Positions 629-12,152 of a stretch of DNA of 12,152 nucleotides are shown here, piece after piece. Each line of letters opens with the position of its first letter. Position 1 is the first letter of the stretch. The DNA comes from Bacteroidota bacterium. Its GTDB lineage: Bacteria; Bacteroidota; Bacteroidia; NS11-12g; UBA955. A program made the translations under genes and the position numbers. Location: assembly GCA_030836345.1 (NCBI GenBank), contig JAURQA010000139.1:1-12152 (forward strand). Reading direction: 5' to 3'. The notes beneath the pieces are model-generated. The model was not told the DNA's origin. It ran no database searches and worked only from the letters and a program-made list of their open reading frames with translations.

Positions 629-1165
629 ATGAAAATGGTAAAGAAATTAAGCATCCTTCTTTTTAGCATCGCTAGTTTTAGCTTTGTTAATGCTCAAAAC
701 ATTGGTTACGTGGATTCTGATGTCATCTTAAATAAGATGCCCGAATACAAATCAGCGCAACAGCAACTAGACGATATGGCTGCTAAATGGCAGGCAAAAG
801 CGGATGAGATGCAAGCAGAAGTAGATGAGTTGTTTAGAAACTTTGACGCAGAAAAAGTATTTCTAACTCCTGAACAAGGAGAAGCGAAACAAAAAGCCAT
901 TATTGAAAAAGAAGATGCTTTATTTAAGTACCGAGAAGAAAAATTCGGTCAAAATGGAAAGCTGTTTAAAAAGAGAGAAGAGCTTATCAAACCAATCCAA
1001 GATAAAATTTATGCAGCCGTTCAAAAGATATCTAAAAAGAATGGCATCAAATTTATGTTTGATAAGGCAGGTGGCGTGCTTATGCTCTATGCCGATGAAA
1101 AATATGATAAAACAGAAGATGTGATGCAAGAGTTAGGCATTACTACCACAACATTAGAAGAATAA
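629..1165 (+). CDS. OmpH/Skp-family periplasmic chaperone (first copy)
   Basis: 178-residue secreted protein of the OmpH/Skp family, trimeric periplasmic holdases that carry unfolded outer-membrane proteins to the BAM machine. A signal peptide (KK, then a hydrophobic stretch LSILLFSIASFSFVNA) is predicted to be cut after Ala22, followed by QNIGYVDSDVILNKMPEYK, the typical first strand and helix of the fold. The middle (about 40-130) is a charged, Ala/Gln/Glu/Lys-rich helical hairpin forming the tentacles, and the C-terminus (GIKFMFDKAGGVLMLYAD) returns to the body domain. The ATG at 629 is used; a second in-frame ATG at 635 is possible. It sits 2 nt before a paralogue, the tandem pair common in Bacteroidota, although bamA is not adjacent here. 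Confidence 0.93.
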   Translation: MKMVKKLSILLFSIASFSFVNAQNIGYVDSDVILNKMPEYKSAQQQLDDMAAKWQAKADEMQAEVDELFRNFDAEKVFLTPEQGEAKQKAIIEKEDALFKYREEKFGQNGKLFKKREELIKPIQDKIYAAVQKISKKNGIKFMFDKAGGVLMLYADEKYDKTEDVMQELGITTTTLEE

Positions 1166-5407: not shown

Positions 5408-6025
5408 TTGGAAACCTACCGCATTGAATATGGCTATCTCCCTCAACAGGAATTTAAGGCCATTGTGCGGCAGATAAAAAAAGGTGATTTAGCTATTTTT
5501 CCAACTGACTCAGTATATACTTTGGCTTGCGCTTTGAGCGCAAAAGATTCGATTAAACGCTTGTGTAAACTGGTTGGGAAAAAGTCAGAACAGGCTCAAC
5601 TGAGTATCATTTGCAATGATTTCTCCATGATATCAGACTTTACCGTTCATTTTAGTACGAGCAATTTTAGAAGCATGAAGGCCGCTTTACCAGGGCCTTA
5701 TACTTTTATCTTAAATGCCGATAAAAATCAGACTAAACATTGGGAAAACAAGCGAAAAACTATAGGCGTTCGAATACCTAATCAGGATTTCTTACTGGAA
5801 TTAATTGGCCAAATTGGTGAGCCTCTTATTTGCAGTTCCTTGCACAGCGAGGATGAATTGAAATCCTATTTTACAGAACCTGAAAATATAGAACAGCAAT
5901 ATAAAAATACCATTGACTTATTTGTGGAGGACGGTGCCGGAGGCACGGAGCCTAGTACCGTAGTTGATTGCACAGGTGATTATCCAGAATTAATTAGAGA
6001 AGGGATGGGAACACGGCCGCTGTAG
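5408..6025 (+). CDS. YciO/Sua5-family (threonylcarbamoyl-AMP synthase-like) protein
   Basis: 205-residue YrdC-fold protein. The family makes threonylcarbamoyl-AMP for t6A modification of ANN-decoding tRNAs. This one resembles the YciO branch, whose role is less certain. Motifs in order: FPTDSVYTL (31-39; usually PTDTVYGL), PGPYTFIL (95-102), KRKTIGVRIP (115-124), EPLICSSLHS (138-147, where canonical Sua5 has a TSAN-type motif), and STVVDCTG followed by ELIREGMG (183-201). The start is a TTG at 5408, with no in-frame ATG nearby, and lies 2 nt after the lipoprotein stop. The TAG at 6023-6025 lies at the beginning of the helicase frame. Because the VYGL glycine and the TSAN-type motif are changed, it may not be the main t6A enzyme. 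Confidence 0.82.
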   Translation: METYRIEYGYLPQQEFKAIVRQIKKGDLAIFPTDSVYTLACALSAKDSIKRLCKLVGKKSEQAQLSIICNDFSMISDFTVHFSTSNFRSMKAALPGPYTFILNADKNQTKHWENKRKTIGVRIPNQDFLLELIGQIGEPLICSSLHSEDELKSYFTEPENIEQQYKNTIDLFVEDGAGGTEPSTVVDCTGDYPELIREGMGTRPL

Positions 6026-9734: not shown

Positions 9735-9808
9735 GGGGGATTAGCTCAGTTGGCTAGAGTACTTGCATGGCATGCAAGGGGTCATCGGTTCGAATCCGAT
9801 ATCCTCCA
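9735..9808 (+). tRNA. tRNA-Ala (anticodon GGC)
   Basis: A full cloverleaf can be drawn. Acceptor GGGGGAT pairs with ATCCTCC, with a G-U wobble exactly at position 3-70, the identity mark of tRNA-Ala. The D-arm is GCTC/GAGT, the anticodon stem CTTGC/GCAAG with loop ATGGCAT (GGC at 9769-9771), and the T-arm ATCGG/CCGAT with loop TTCGAAT. Discriminator A at 9808. The CCA end is not encoded (CA only), so it must be added enzymatically. Confidence 0.95.
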
Positions 9809-9814
9809 CAAGCC

Positions 9815-9888
9815 GGGCCTATAGCTCAGTTGGTTAGAGCACCTGACTCATAATCAGGTGGTCCTTGGTTCGAGTCCAAGTGGGCCCA
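9815..9888 (+). tRNA. tRNA-Ile2 (anticodon CAT, lysidine-modified; reads AUA)
   Basis: Acceptor GGGCCTA pairs with TGGGCCC (one wobble), D-arm GCTC/GAGC, anticodon stem CCTGA/TCAGG with loop CTCATAA (CAT at 9849-9851), T-arm CTTGG/CCAAG with loop TTCGAGT, discriminator A. A CAT anticodon could mean Met, but the GACTCATAATC context and the acceptor sequence are those of the minor isoleucine tRNA whose C34 is changed to lysidine by TilS. It lies 6 nt behind tRNA-Ala in the same transcript. CCA is not encoded. Confidence 0.9.
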
Positions 9889-9890
9889 CT

Positions 9891-9928: not shown

Positions 9929-10202
9929 GACAGTAGGTTAGAACATATCAAATATAATAAAACTATTTGAATATGGCATTAAATTGTATGAATATGGCAG
10001 TTATTAGACAGTTAAAAAGCCAAAAAAATCCGAACTACTTTTCTTATTCACCACCCCCGTACTCTTTAAAATATGGGCTTCTTATTTGAAGGCTTTGCTC
10101 AGAACGGGTATACAACCCAATGGCTTACTGTCAGTAATTAGGAATAAGGACATAAAAAAGCTCCCACTATCAAGGGGTACACTAAATGTCAGTTGAAATT
10201 TC
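9929..10202. other. Intergenic region between the tRNA terminator and the repeat array
   Basis: No credible gene. It contains a short direct repeat (TGAATATGGCA twice, about 9968-9998), then a C5 run at 10054-10058 that begins the 88-nt array repeat, and at 10154-10180 AAAAAAG-CTCCC...GGGG, a degraded version of the minus-strand terminator seen clearly at 11123-11149. The repeat here has the layout of an upstream region (C run and adjacent sequence as at 12057-12152), but no signal-peptide gene lies to its left. A 38-codon frame at 9973-10089 runs into the repeat and has no support. Confidence 0.6.
10060..10147 (-). repeat. Array intergenic repeat, copy 1
   Basis: All 88 nt are identical to 12065-12152, 2005 nt away. 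It contains GGGTATACAACCC and the 13-nt perfect dyad TTACTGTCAGTAA at 10125-10137. Identical non-coding sequence beside diverged coding sequence implies recent duplication, gene conversion or selection on the DNA itself. Orientation is given relative to the genes of the array. Confidence 0.95.
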
Positions 10203-11027
10203 TCAAAAAGTTAAACAATCAAATGCCATATTACCTTGAGTCTCTTGCTCTGTGGTTCTTAACCAACAACAATGTATTTTCCCATCTTTAAATTCTCGAT
10301 AATTCTTAACAAAGTCATCGATATAATTAGCATTAAAGTTAGAAATAACTTTGTTTGGGAAGGAATTACCAAACTCACTTTTCAAATAGCTAATAATAGT
10401 TGCTCCATAAGTAGGCTCAGATTCTCCTTCCACCGCACACCATTGTCTAAGTTCCTCCCGTATCAATTTTCCTTTGTTATTGAAATACACACAATAAAAA
10501 CTGCCACAATCGCCACAAGCACTAGCACCAACACTAATTTTTGCTACTTTACCATTTTTGTGAAATCTCATAACTGCACCTTCCTCATTATTGTTTTCTT
10601 TTGTGAGAAAAACTTCTTTTTTATATTTTGAGTATTCAAGACATAATGAATCTAACTTCAAATATTCCTTTATATTAATATCTGACTCAGTATTTGAAAC
10701 TCCTTTTACAAAATTTACTATGATTTTACCCAATGAATCAATATTCAACTTCTTGTTTTCAATCTCAATCTTTAAATTATTAATTTTTAGTGCATCCCTT
10801 TTTTCATTACTAAGTTTTGATTGCCTTTCACTTGAAAGGGCTAATCTAAAACTATCAAGCCTGCTGTTTAACTTAATACTATTCTCATTACTCAGCTTTA
10901 TTTCTTTTGAAAGGGCTAATCTAAAACTATCAACCCTGCTATTAAGCGTGATAATTTGTTTCTTTTTAGACTGAGCATAAACCACAGTATTAGCCAAAGC
11001 AAATACCAAGAACAACATCTTTTTCAT
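10203..11027 (-). CDS. Secreted coiled-coil protein, array paralogue 1
   Basis: 274 residues, no recognised family. The signal peptide MKKMLFLVFALANTVVYA is cut after Ala18, so it is periplasmic, secreted or surface-exposed. Residues 28-52 are a 25-residue repeat unit (LNSRVDSFRLALS, then KEIKLSNENSIK), followed by a second, diverging copy and a charged helical stalk to about 105. Twenty-five residues fit two heptads plus an eleven-residue step, a plausible coiled coil. The C-terminal domain (about 145-274) has short beta-like segments (AVMRFHKNGKVAKISVGA, VYFNNKGKLIREELRQW) and seven cysteines (171, 174, 179, 197, 253, 254, 271), suggesting disulfides. Residues 1-65 and the upstream region nearly match the neighbour at 11259-12035; the rest does not. 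A minus-strand TATATTTG box lies 4 nt before the ATG. AT-rich compared with the core genes. Confidence 0.85.
   Translation of the reverse strand: MKKMLFLVFALANTVVYAQSKKKQIITLNSRVDSFRLALSKEIKLSNENSIKLNSRLDSFRLALSSERQSKLSNEKRDALKINNLKIEIENKKLNIDSLGKIIVNFVKGVSNTESDINIKEYLKLDSLCLEYSKYKKEVFLTKENNNEEGAVMRFHKNGKVAKISVGASACGDCGSFYCVYFNNKGKLIREELRQWCAVEGESEPTYGATIISYLKSEFGNSFPNKVISNFNANYIDDFVKNYREFKDGKIHCCWLRTTEQETQGNMAFDCLTF
10852..10948 (-). repeat. 75-nt coding repeat in array paralogue 1
   Basis: The unit begins CTATCAA on the plus strand at 10852 and again at 10927, exactly 75 nt apart. One full copy, the start of a second, and a diverged partial copy at about 10812-10851 are visible. It encodes the 25-residue stalk unit and differs in copy number from paralogue 2. 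Confidence 0.85.
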
Positions 11028-11031
11028 ACCA

Positions 11032-11039
11032 CAAATATA
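11032..11039 (-). promoter_or_regulatory. -7 promoter box of array paralogue 1
   Basis: On the minus strand TATATTTG lies 4 nt before the ATG, matching TAnnTTTG exactly. No TTG at the -33 distance is seen. The geometry predicts a leaderless or nearly leaderless mRNA. The same box and gap recur before paralogue 2. Confidence 0.55.
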
Positions 11040-11043
11040 TAGA

Positions 11044-11074
11044 TTTTACCCAAAAATGTTTGGGGTGGGTAAAA
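11044..11074. repeat. Hairpin upstream of array paralogue 1
   Basis: TTTTACCC (11044-11051) and GGGTAAAA (11067-11074) are perfect 8-bp arms, and inside them CCCAAA/TTTGGG with loop AATG forms a second stem. The structure sits directly upstream of the -7 box of paralogue 1 and is absent at the same place before paralogue 2, where a G7 tract is found instead. Confidence 0.6.
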
Positions 11075-11089
11075 TAGGTTCAGATATAT

Positions 11090-11113
11090 AACCCAATGGC
11101 TTACTGTCAGTAA
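11090..11113 (-). repeat. Array intergenic repeat, copy 2 (24-nt core only)
   Basis: These 24 nt are identical to the core of copies 1 and 3, including the dyad TTACTGTCAGTAA at 11101-11113. Flanking sequence to the left (TCAGATATATAACCC) is a loose match to TCAGAACGGGTATACAACCC in the other copies; the rest has diverged. Confidence 0.85.
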
Positions 11114-11122
11114 ATCGGGTAT

Positions 11123-11149
11123 AAAAAAGCCCCTGACGATTTAGGGGCT
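11123..11149 (-). terminator. Rho-independent terminator of array paralogue 2
   Basis: Read on the minus strand, a perfect 7-bp stem (AGCCCCT at 11143-11149 and AGGGGCT at 11128-11134) with an 8-nt loop is followed by six T. It lies about 110 nt behind the stop of the gene at 11259, after the decayed fragment, so the fragment is within the transcribed unit. Confidence 0.85.
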
Positions 11150-11184
11150 AAAATCTTGGTTGATAATTAAGAAATTTAAAAAAT

Positions 11185-11250
11185 AAGGCAACTTGAGCTC
11201 TTAGCTCTGCAGTTCTCACCTAACAATAATGTTTGCCCATCTCAGAGTCC
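11185..11250 (-). pseudogene. Decayed copy of the 3' end of an array gene
   Basis: The plus strand at 11192-11242 aligns with 10235-10287, the region coding for IHCCWLRTTEQETQ in paralogue 1, matching at about 43 of some 55 aligned positions counted by eye, with small gaps. In the nearest reading frames it has stop codons and frameshifts (one reads MGKHYC, stop, VRTAE). It begins almost directly after the stop codon of paralogue 2. Best reading: the old C-terminal end of this gene, displaced when a new C-terminal part was acquired. Confidence 0.7.
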
Positions 11251-11258
11251 TCAGAGCG

Positions 11259-12035
11259 CTATTCACAATCACCTTCGCAGCGCATTAATTCCCAATGGGA
11301 GTAATTTTTATACGTTTTTGTCCAAACATCCCTATCTATTACACCCCCTAAAAAGAAATGCTGAGTTATGCTCACCTCATCAATAGTATTACTTTTAAGA
11401 GAATAGGTTCTACAACTACCTGAAGAAGTTGTTATATACACAGCATCTTCCGCACGATTGAACTTAGCGTTTCCAAAATCATCAAAAACTGCAATAACAG
11501 AATTCCCATAAAGCAACTGTATTTTATAGTCAGCAATGAAAGGTATTACTGCTGCCGGAGATTCTCTTTTATTACTCATTATAAAATTAAATCTAAAATC
11601 TGAGGCCTTGGTGATATTATTACTTTCCGCCTTTAGTGAATCAATTATTAGCTCTTTCTTTTTAAGTTCATTATCTAATTCAACAATTTTATCATAGGCG
11701 GAGTAAGAATAGTTTTTGAAATAAACTAAACTGTCCGAATAGTTTTTTAGCATTGAATTAAGTGAGCTAAGATTGTCATATAAACTATCAACCTTGCTAT
11801 TTAACTTAATACTGTTCTCATTACTCAGCTTTATCTCATTCGACAGAGCTAACCTAAAACTATCAACCTTGCTGTTTAACTTAATACTATTCTCATTGCT
11901 TAGCTTTATTTCTTTTGAAAGGGCTAATCTAAAACTATCAACTCTGTTATTAAGCGTAATAATTTGTTTCTTTTTTGACTGAGCATAAACCACAGTATTA
12001 GCCATTGCAAATACCAAGAATAACATCTTTTTCAT
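11259..12035 (-). CDS. Secreted coiled-coil protein, array paralogue 2
   Basis: 258 residues, no recognised family. The signal peptide MKKMLFLVFAMANTVVYA differs by one residue from paralogue 1. Stalk: two full 25-residue units (28-52, 53-77; core VDSFRLALS and EIKLSNENSIK) and a partial third (78 on), then an Asp/Ser/Lys-rich helix to about 140 (DKIVELDNELKKKELIIDSLKAE). The C-terminal domain (145-258) is beta-like (YKIQLLYGNSVIAVFDDFGN, AVYITTSSGSCRTYSL) with three cysteines (208, 253, 257) and the end MRCEGDCE; it shares nothing obvious with the C-terminal domain of paralogue 1. Start ATG at 12035. A minus-strand promoter box, AT-dinucleotide tract and G7 tract lie just upstream. Possible roles are adhesin, surface decoy or effector; none can be shown. 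Confidence 0.85.
   Translation of the reverse strand: MKKMLFLVFAMANTVVYAQSKKKQIITLNNRVDSFRLALSKEIKLSNENSIKLNSKVDSFRLALSNEIKLSNENSIKLNSKVDSLYDNLSSLNSMLKNYSDSLVYFKNYSYSAYDKIVELDNELKKKELIIDSLKAESNNITKASDFRFNFIMSNKRESPAAVIPFIADYKIQLLYGNSVIAVFDDFGNAKFNRAEDAVYITTSSGSCRTYSLKSNTIDEVSITQHFFLGGVIDRDVWTKTYKNYSHWELMRCEGDCE
11785..11956 (-). repeat. 75-nt coding tandem repeat in array paralogue 2
   Basis: Copies start at 11785, 11860 and 11935 (each beginning CTATCAAC on the plus strand), exactly 75 nt apart; the third is partial. The period is a multiple of three, so gain or loss of units changes stalk length without breaking the frame. Confidence 0.92.
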
Positions 12036-12039
12036 ACCA

Positions 12040-12063
12040 CAAATATATATATATTACCCCCCC
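12040..12063 (-). promoter_or_regulatory. Promoter region of array paralogue 2 with simple-sequence tracts
   Basis: On the minus strand, G7 (12057-12063), then an AT-dinucleotide tract (12043-12054) merging into TATATTTG (12040-12047), 4 nt before the ATG. Both tracts are longer than their counterparts at the other sites (C5 at 10054-10058; a shorter ATATATA at 11035-11041). Slippage here would change promoter spacing or the box itself. Confidence 0.5.
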
Positions 12064-12064
12064 A

Positions 12065-12152
12065 TACTCTTTAAAATATGGGCTTCTTATTTGAAGGCTT
12101 TGCTCAGAACGGGTATACAACCCAATGGCTTACTGTCAGTAATTAGGAATAA
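12065..12152 (-). repeat. Array intergenic repeat, copy 3, cut by window edge
   Basis: Identical to 10060-10147 over all 88 nt, including the dyad at 12130-12142. Since copy 1 lies behind the stop of paralogue 1, copy 3 probably lies behind the stop of a further array gene just beyond the window. Confidence 0.93.

What the first reader, a model, noticed from the sequence alone, without database searches (positions are those of the whole stretch)
10054..12152. Tandem array of secreted coiled-coil proteins with constant 5' parts and unrelated C-terminal domains
Seen: two minus-strand genes share almost identical promoter boxes, signal peptides and first stalk repeat (about the first 65 codons), then have no visible similarity. 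Repeats separate them, with dyads 976 and 1029 nt apart, and a third repeat at the right edge points to more units. Inference: a modular family in which a constant export and stalk unit displays variable tips, as in antigenic variation or C-terminal polymorphism of other systems. I know no described family with this exact layout, but could not search.
Basis: partly seen in the sequence, partly recalled or inferred. Interest (0 to 1): 0.8.

Follow-up and report, generated by a model that had tools for sequence, protein, structure and literature searches.

The report
Secreted stalk proteins with swappable tips
Beside a tRNA gene, an uncultured Bacteroidia bacterium carries two neighbouring genes for exported rod-like proteins that share one front half but end in unrelated domains, and related sequences show front halves and ends in many combinations, which looks like a natural mix-and-match kit for exported domains.

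Summary
Genes 11027-10203 and 12035-11259 share promoter, signal peptide and about 60 codons (93-97% DNA identity), then similarity drops to background. The repeats lie where stated and the contig ends inside a 94-nt repeat copy. A modular family is strongly supported: 54 relatives from a protein search plus the two window proteins have one N-terminal cluster and 18 C-terminal clusters (14 tip types after setting aside shortened copies). Signal peptides and tips assort independently: pairs with tips 80-95% identical have signal peptides only 13-40% identical, and the window's signal-peptide type goes with 12 tip types. At the orthologous tRNA-Met locus of a sister genome the gene A unit is absent, with the break in the shared repeat. 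That repeat is part of a ~130-nt sequence often found behind tRNA genes. Against a large array: the incomplete own assembly shows only two units, the sister genome one, broken. Most likely, units and tips are gained, lost and re-fronted by recombination in a tRNA-associated island, varying what a Sec-exported stalk carries. Shown: modularity, unit presence/absence. Inferred: binding function, cell-surface location, recombination route. My paper searches listed no description of it.

The parts
10203..11027 (-). gene A, 274 aa: signal peptide, stalk, tip type A
   Evidence: tip relatives P0027 and P0038
11259..12035 (-). gene B, 258 aa: signal peptide, stalk, tip type B
   Evidence: tip relatives P0001-P0013
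10828..11051 (-). constant 5' part of gene A (promoter region, signal peptide, first stalk repeats)
   Evidence: 224 nt, 92% identical to 11836-12059
11836..12059 (-). constant 5' part of gene B
10206..10664 (-). tip A, residues 122-274
   Evidence: last stretch shared with another tip type ends at residue 121
11262..11606 (-). tip B, residues 144-258
   Evidence: last stretch shared with another tip type ends at residue 143; mostly beta strands in the model
11032..11039 (-). TAnnTTTG box of gene A, 12 nt before ATG
   Evidence: pattern match; motif recalled, function not tested
12040..12047 (-). TAnnTTTG box of gene B, 12 nt before ATG
   Evidence: pattern match; motif recalled, function not tested
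10005..10147 (+). tRNA-side copy of the ~130-nt repeat, with dyad 10125-10137
11085..11118 (.). short repeat copy between the two units, with dyad 11101-11113
   Evidence: 34 nt, 91%
12059..12152 (.). 94-nt repeat copy upstream of gene B, cut by the contig end, with dyad 12130-12142
   Evidence: 99% identical to 10054-10147
11128..11149 (-). terminator-like hairpin behind gene B
   Evidence: 2 such sites in the stretch against 1.1 (sd 1.1) in shuffles, so not above chance as a count
9815..9889 (+). tRNA-Met(CAT) beside which the array lies; tRNA-Ala at 9735-9809

Best explanation
The window holds a tandem pair, probably part of a longer array, of single-gene units from a modular family. Each unit has its own promoter box, a signal peptide for Sec export, a coiled-coil-like stalk with 25-residue repeats and one of many unrelated C-terminal tips. 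The pair lies in a tRNA-Met-associated island where small gene sets accumulate. The near-identical 5' parts and the noncoding repeats let homologous recombination delete, insert or exchange units, and tips become joined to the resident 5' part. The stalk probably oligomerises and carries variable binding domains, changing what the cell recognises or how it looks to others. Shown: constant/variable architecture, independent assortment of signal peptide and tip, unit presence/absence between two genomes of the genus with the break in the repeat, location beside a tRNA. Inferred: homologous recombination as the route, oligomerisation, binding function, location outside the inner membrane, more units to the right.
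For: One N-terminal but 18 C-terminal clusters among 56 proteins. Of 1109 different-tip pairs 421 have signal peptides at least 80% identical, with tips at 23.1% (shuffles 22.6%); of 166 same-tip pairs 34 have signal peptides under 60% identical, e.g. P0032/P0051 tip 95%, signal peptide 20%. Sharp DNA boundary between A and B. G001 has the orthologous locus without the gene A unit, the two matches overlapping in the repeat. Stalk repeat number varies, 1 to 4 motifs per protein. Solitary members with the same layout and other tips in other genera. Repeat behind tRNA-Met, -Arg, -Glu and -Asn; 228-nt direct repeats round a DUF285 gene at tRNA-Glu of G001.
Against: Only two units in the own assembly and one, in two frames, in G001. 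The relatives were fetched by similarity to A and B, so the single N-terminal cluster is partly by construction; most have no genome context. Tips A and B were found on no other front part (37 and 51 hits, all in the N-terminal cluster; tip A alone 2 hits), so capture from elsewhere is indicated only for the NF046077 and DUF285 tips. Stalk periodicity is above shuffles for the mean of 56 but not for A or B singly. Models are weak: mean pLDDT 59.9 (B) and 36.7 (A). No ligand, no localisation. In one relative the C-terminal part looks like a periplasmic TonB domain (L070, by eye), against surface display.
Confidence: 0.6

Rival explanations
1. A dedicated site-specific system moves the units: the ~130-nt repeat with its dyad is the recombination site of a tRNA-targeting recombinase supplied elsewhere, integron-like.
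For: The repeat recurs behind different tRNA genes and in two families but in 11 of 107 genomes only; direct repeats flank small gene sets at tRNA-Glu of G001, one copy reaching into the tRNA end; an integrase island (PF00589) sits in tRNA-Met of G001 with a 105-nt duplication.
Against: No recombinase was recognised in the window; the repeat copies differ in where they begin and end, as homologous recombination would leave them; the G001 integrase island lies between its tRNA copies and not round the stalk unit; 7 of 17 copies of at least 100 nt have no tRNA in the expected place.
Confidence: 0.13
2. Polymorphic toxins: constant trafficking part, variable toxic C-terminal domains.
For: Constant front, variable C-terminal domain.
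Against: The 231 nt between the genes hold no frame over 37 codons, so no immunity gene there; no toxin family among the Pfam matches of 41 members at E 0.01; DUF285 and NF046077 tips are not toxins by name.
Confidence: 0.05
3. Antigenic variation with one expressed copy and silent stores.
For: Repeated 5' parts and unit turnover.
Against: Both window genes carry a start codon, signal peptide and the same promoter box; no promoterless tip store was seen, though none was searched for specifically.
Confidence: 0.06
4. Assembly chimeras at the shared repeats joined front parts and tips that do not belong together.
For: Exact repeats up to 88 nt, short metagenome contigs for many relatives, contig ends at the repeats in both genomes.
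Against: Solitary members in other genera show the same layout with other tips, some on long contigs (G012 C1, 1.79 Mb); one tip type, NF046077, is listed on 23 and 17 contigs for single clusters (P0040, P0041); tip B occurs with several stalks.
Confidence: 0.06
5. Ordinary paralogues whose C-terminal halves diverged beyond recognition.
For: Tips could share a fold without sequence similarity; fold comparison was inconclusive.
Against: DNA identity falls from 93-97% to background within about ten codons; same tip with different signal peptide and the reverse.
Confidence: 0.03

Closest known systems
MAT (mosaic adhesive trimeric) fibres of Bdellovibrio (PMC10769870, passages read)
   Same: Constant fibre part with N-terminal domain invariable in (predicted) structure and diversified C-terminal tips; one pair is 75% identical in the fibre and then differs
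   Different: Those are phage-fibre-like trimers of about 1000 residues, some with an autoproteolytic S74 domain; here about 230-380 residues with a coiled-coil-like stalk and no known anchor
Additive flexible genomic islands and tycheposons at tRNA genes (PMC4119200 and PMC10872708, passages read)
   Same: A conserved tRNA as insertion place, gene sets added or missing between genomes, repeats of the tRNA end or its flank
   Different: There the cassettes are metabolic or resistance genes; here units of one chimeric protein family, with a shared coding 5' part
PARCEL / DUF285 proteins (PMC2996958, passages read)
   Same: 25-residue repeats in exported proteins spread by transfer; DUF285 is one of the tip types (2 of 41 members)
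   Different: The stalk repeat is another sequence; the window proteins do not match DUF285
Polymorphic toxins (PMC3482391, listing and abstract start seen)
   Same: Constant front, C-terminal domains varied by recombination
   Different: No immunity gene between the window genes, no toxin domain recognised
M949_RS01915 family, NF046077 (PMC5294843, listing and abstract start seen)
   Same: One tip type belongs to it (4 of 41 members scanned)
   Different: In the order it was found in 5 of 107 genomes, and in the two that I read from the start (L064, L065) in lipoprotein-like proteins without the stalk

Membership tests
Additive tRNA-associated genomic island | Conserved tRNA as the place of insertion | tested here: met
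   Array beside tRNA-Met/tRNA-Ala; locus syntenic with G001 (4505 nt at 90%)
Additive tRNA-associated genomic island | Cassettes present or absent between genomes at the same locus | tested here: met
   Gene A unit missing from G001, break in the repeat; two genomes only
Additive tRNA-associated genomic island | Duplicated tRNA 3' end or flank | tested here: inconclusive
   Seen in G001 (L034 336-440/5497-5601; L032 16934-17147/18558-18784); in the window contig only one tRNA-Met was found
Tycheposon | Tyrosine recombinase in the island | tested here: inconclusive
   None recognised in the window by eye; one in L034 (PF00589, E 2e-8), in a separate island
Integron | Integron integrase and attC sites | not tested
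   No search for IntI or attC core sites was made
MAT fibre | Trimeric fibre with phage-fibre-like domains | tested here: inconclusive
   No clear fold match of the gene B model; oligomeric state not testable here
Polymorphic toxin | Immunity gene next to the toxin gene | tested here: not met
   231 nt between the genes, longest open stretch 37 codons
Polymorphic toxin | Recognisable toxin domain | tested here: inconclusive
   None among Pfam matches of 41 members at E 0.01; most tips match nothing
PARCEL / DUF285 protein | DUF285 repeats | tested here: not met
   Neither window protein matches; 2 of 41 family members do

The most novel reading that the evidence does not exclude
A dedicated gene-cassette system works at tRNA genes in this lineage: the ~130-nt repeat with its dyad is the site by which units are captured, deleted and reordered, and the resident constant 5' part turns captured domains into exported stalk proteins. 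It would work like an integron that builds chimeric exported proteins.
Probability: 0.15. Interest if true: 0.85.

Novelty: new variant of a known kind. Interest (0 to 1): 0.6.

Why it matters
If true, free-living bacteria make new exported proteins by fitting varied end domains to one export-and-stalk part, visible as the same tip on different fronts and different tips on one front. Because the units sit beside known tRNA genes with repeats as borders, their turnover in natural populations can be measured directly with long reads. Most of the 14 tip types are undescribed small domains.
Full report
WHAT IS THERE. The window is contig C95 of an incomplete genome (66.89% complete, 300 contigs). 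At its right end two minus-strand genes (A, 11027-10203; B, 12035-11259) share a 224-nt stretch of 92% identity with promoter region, signal peptide and first stalk repeats. DNA identity is 93-97% per 10-codon block over codons 1-60 and 23-57% beyond. The later parts of the two proteins are no more alike than shuffles (51 of 200 reach the score). Repeats with the dyad TTACTGTCAGTAA stand at 10125, 11101 and 12130. The longest exact direct repeat is 88 nt against 15 in Markov sequences. The contig ends inside a 94-nt repeat copy, as assemblies do where a repeat has more than one continuation, so a further unit is likely but cannot be read. The own assembly holds no other significant copy of the N-terminal part.

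THE FAMILY. Searches with B and A gave 37 and 51 relatives, 54 distinct proteins. With A and B, the first 65 residues form one cluster of 56 and the last 120 residues 18 clusters. Because the relatives were fetched with A and B, the single front cluster is partly by construction; the many tips are not. By reading, four of the seven single-member clusters (P0029, P0037, P0039, P0050) are shortened copies of other types, which leaves 14 tip types. DUF285 is one (2 of 41 members scanned), NF046077 another (4 of 41); other Pfam matches were weak, mostly to coiled-coil families. The last stretch shared with another tip type ends 60 to 150 residues in. The stalk motif xDSFRLAL occurs 1, 2, 3 or 4 times in 24, 28, 2 and 2 proteins. 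P0001 has tip B unchanged and one 25-residue repeat fewer than gene B.

FRONT AND TIP ASSORT INDEPENDENTLY. I distinguish five signal-peptide types by eye. The window's type occurs with 12 of the 14 tips; six tips (B, A, SRFF, T12, T13 and, through a shortened copy, T8) occur with two or more types. For 51 of the 56 proteins (P0029, P0037, P0039, P0050 and P0054 left out), 421 of 1109 different-tip pairs have signal peptides at least 80% identical, with mean tip identity 23.1% against 22.6% in shuffles of 150 pairs. Of 166 same-tip pairs 34 have signal peptides under 60% identical: P0012/P0013 tip 95%, signal peptide 40%; P0032/P0051 95% and 20%; P0034/P0053 89% and 27%; P0014/P0018 88% and 27%; P0038/gene A 81% and 27%. 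Plain divergence does not give this. That a signal-peptide type marks a lineage is inference, as the proteins carry no genome names.

UNIT TURNOVER. G001 is the only other genome of the genus among those searched; its C14 has the length and match position of CALKCM010000014.1. Its tRNA-Met locus begins, at a contig start, in sequence that matches gene B's 3' flank (L034 1-172 = window 11249-11085, 89%) and runs into the tRNA-side repeat (127-440 = window 10155-9821, 85%); the matches overlap at 127-172, in the shared repeat. So G001 has the window's arrangement without the gene A unit. Beyond the tRNA, 4505 nt are syntenic at 90%. The nearness of a contig end is a weakness. P0001 and P0015, with different tips, are both listed with a longest contig of 7,074 bases, which suggests another neighbouring pair.

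THE REPEAT AND ITS PLACE. The repeat belongs to a ~130-nt sequence (13 copies aligned). Within 200 nt behind the 3' end of tRNA-Met, -Arg, -Glu or -Asn stand, by my count, 10 of 17 copies of at least 100 nt (one tRNA is the fragment in L034); L072 has a tRNA in the other orientation and six copies have none there. At E 0.0001 it is in 11 of 107 genomes of the order: genus g1 of the window's family and genera g15 and g17 of the second family; a 24-nt match in G008 is the only sign in another genus of the first family. In G001 it flanks a DUF285 gene as 228-nt direct repeats (86%) at tRNA-Glu, with a third partial copy at 14680-14761. A DUF285 gene at L032 8804-9577 shares promoter region and start with the stalk genes (94% over 87 nt to the stalk gene at 5587) but has no stalk. 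A separate integrase island has entered tRNA-Met of G001, with a 105-nt identical duplication. These features resemble additive islands and tycheposons (PMC4119200, PMC10872708, passages read).

WIDER RELATIVES. The full gene B protein has matches in 4 of 57 relatives. With the N-terminal alignment, 9 of 70 genomes of the family (E 0.001), 11 of 108 of the order (E 0.0001) and 4 of 395 of the class have a hit, own genome included; some hits are false by eye (L056, L057, L069). Others have the same layout with other tips: Fib_succ_major in L048 (PF09603, E 2.6e-28); by eye, a tip shared by L049, L051 and L052, one like that of P0052 in L050, and one shared by L044 and L061. L054 (E 3.8e-4) seems to hold two such genes side by side.

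WHERE TIPS COME FROM. NF046077 was found in 5 of 107 genomes of the order, 4 over the cut-off; of these I read L064 and L065 as lipoprotein-like without the stalk, L067 (below the cut-off) likewise, L066 only from an inner start, L063 not. Tips A and B were found only on this stalk. So the tip supply is seen for two types only.

HOW IT MOST LIKELY WORKS. The signal peptide exports the protein. The stalk shows helical periodicity in the mean of 56 (3.55 residues; power 0.71 against at most 0.48 in 200 shuffle rounds of 20 stalks), not for A or B singly (607 and 165 of 1000 shuffles reach them), and is a long helix, of low confidence, in the gene B model; its tip is mostly strands. The stalk probably oligomerises and holds the tip out. 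Repeats of 90-220 nt allow recombination that removes, adds or re-fronts units. Recognition or adhesion by the tips, location, ligand and benefit are inferred.

COMPARISON. In principle it works most like the MAT fibres of Bdellovibrio (passages of PMC10769870), in setting like additive tRNA islands. It fails the immunity-gene test for polymorphic toxins and is no PARCEL protein. The paper searches listed no description of this family; most subscription papers are not held. I rate it a new variant of a known kind.

Noticed in passing
window 10005-10147; L004, L032, L034-L041, L072-L087: A ~130-nt noncoding sequence stands behind several tRNA genes in two families of the order, without a conserved RNA fold; patchy, 11 of 107 genomes.
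   Followed up: partly
L034 336-5601: Integrase island (PF00589) in tRNA-Met of the sister genome, with a 105-nt identical duplication.
   Followed up: partly
L032 14680-18784: Three copies of the tRNA-Glu flank in a row with genes between them, as if sets had been added one after another.
   Followed up: partly
L032 8804-9577: DUF285 gene with the promoter region and first codons of the stalk genes but no stalk.
   Followed up: partly
L032 5587-6377: The only close stalk gene of the sister genome lies in two frames, so it looks broken.
   Followed up: no
L004 3-17 and L041 3-17 (G000 contigs C278 and C52): Both contig ends encode TFETK of what looks like one gene, so the contigs seem to abut; two repeat copies would then flank two genes beside tRNA-Arg.
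   Followed up: no
window 11032-11039 and 12040-12047: The TAnnTTTG box ends only 4 nt before ATG, which would give mRNAs with almost no leader.
   Followed up: no
window 629-1165 and 1168-1728: Two adjacent genes look like Skp/OmpH periplasmic chaperones (by eye, not searched).
   Followed up: no
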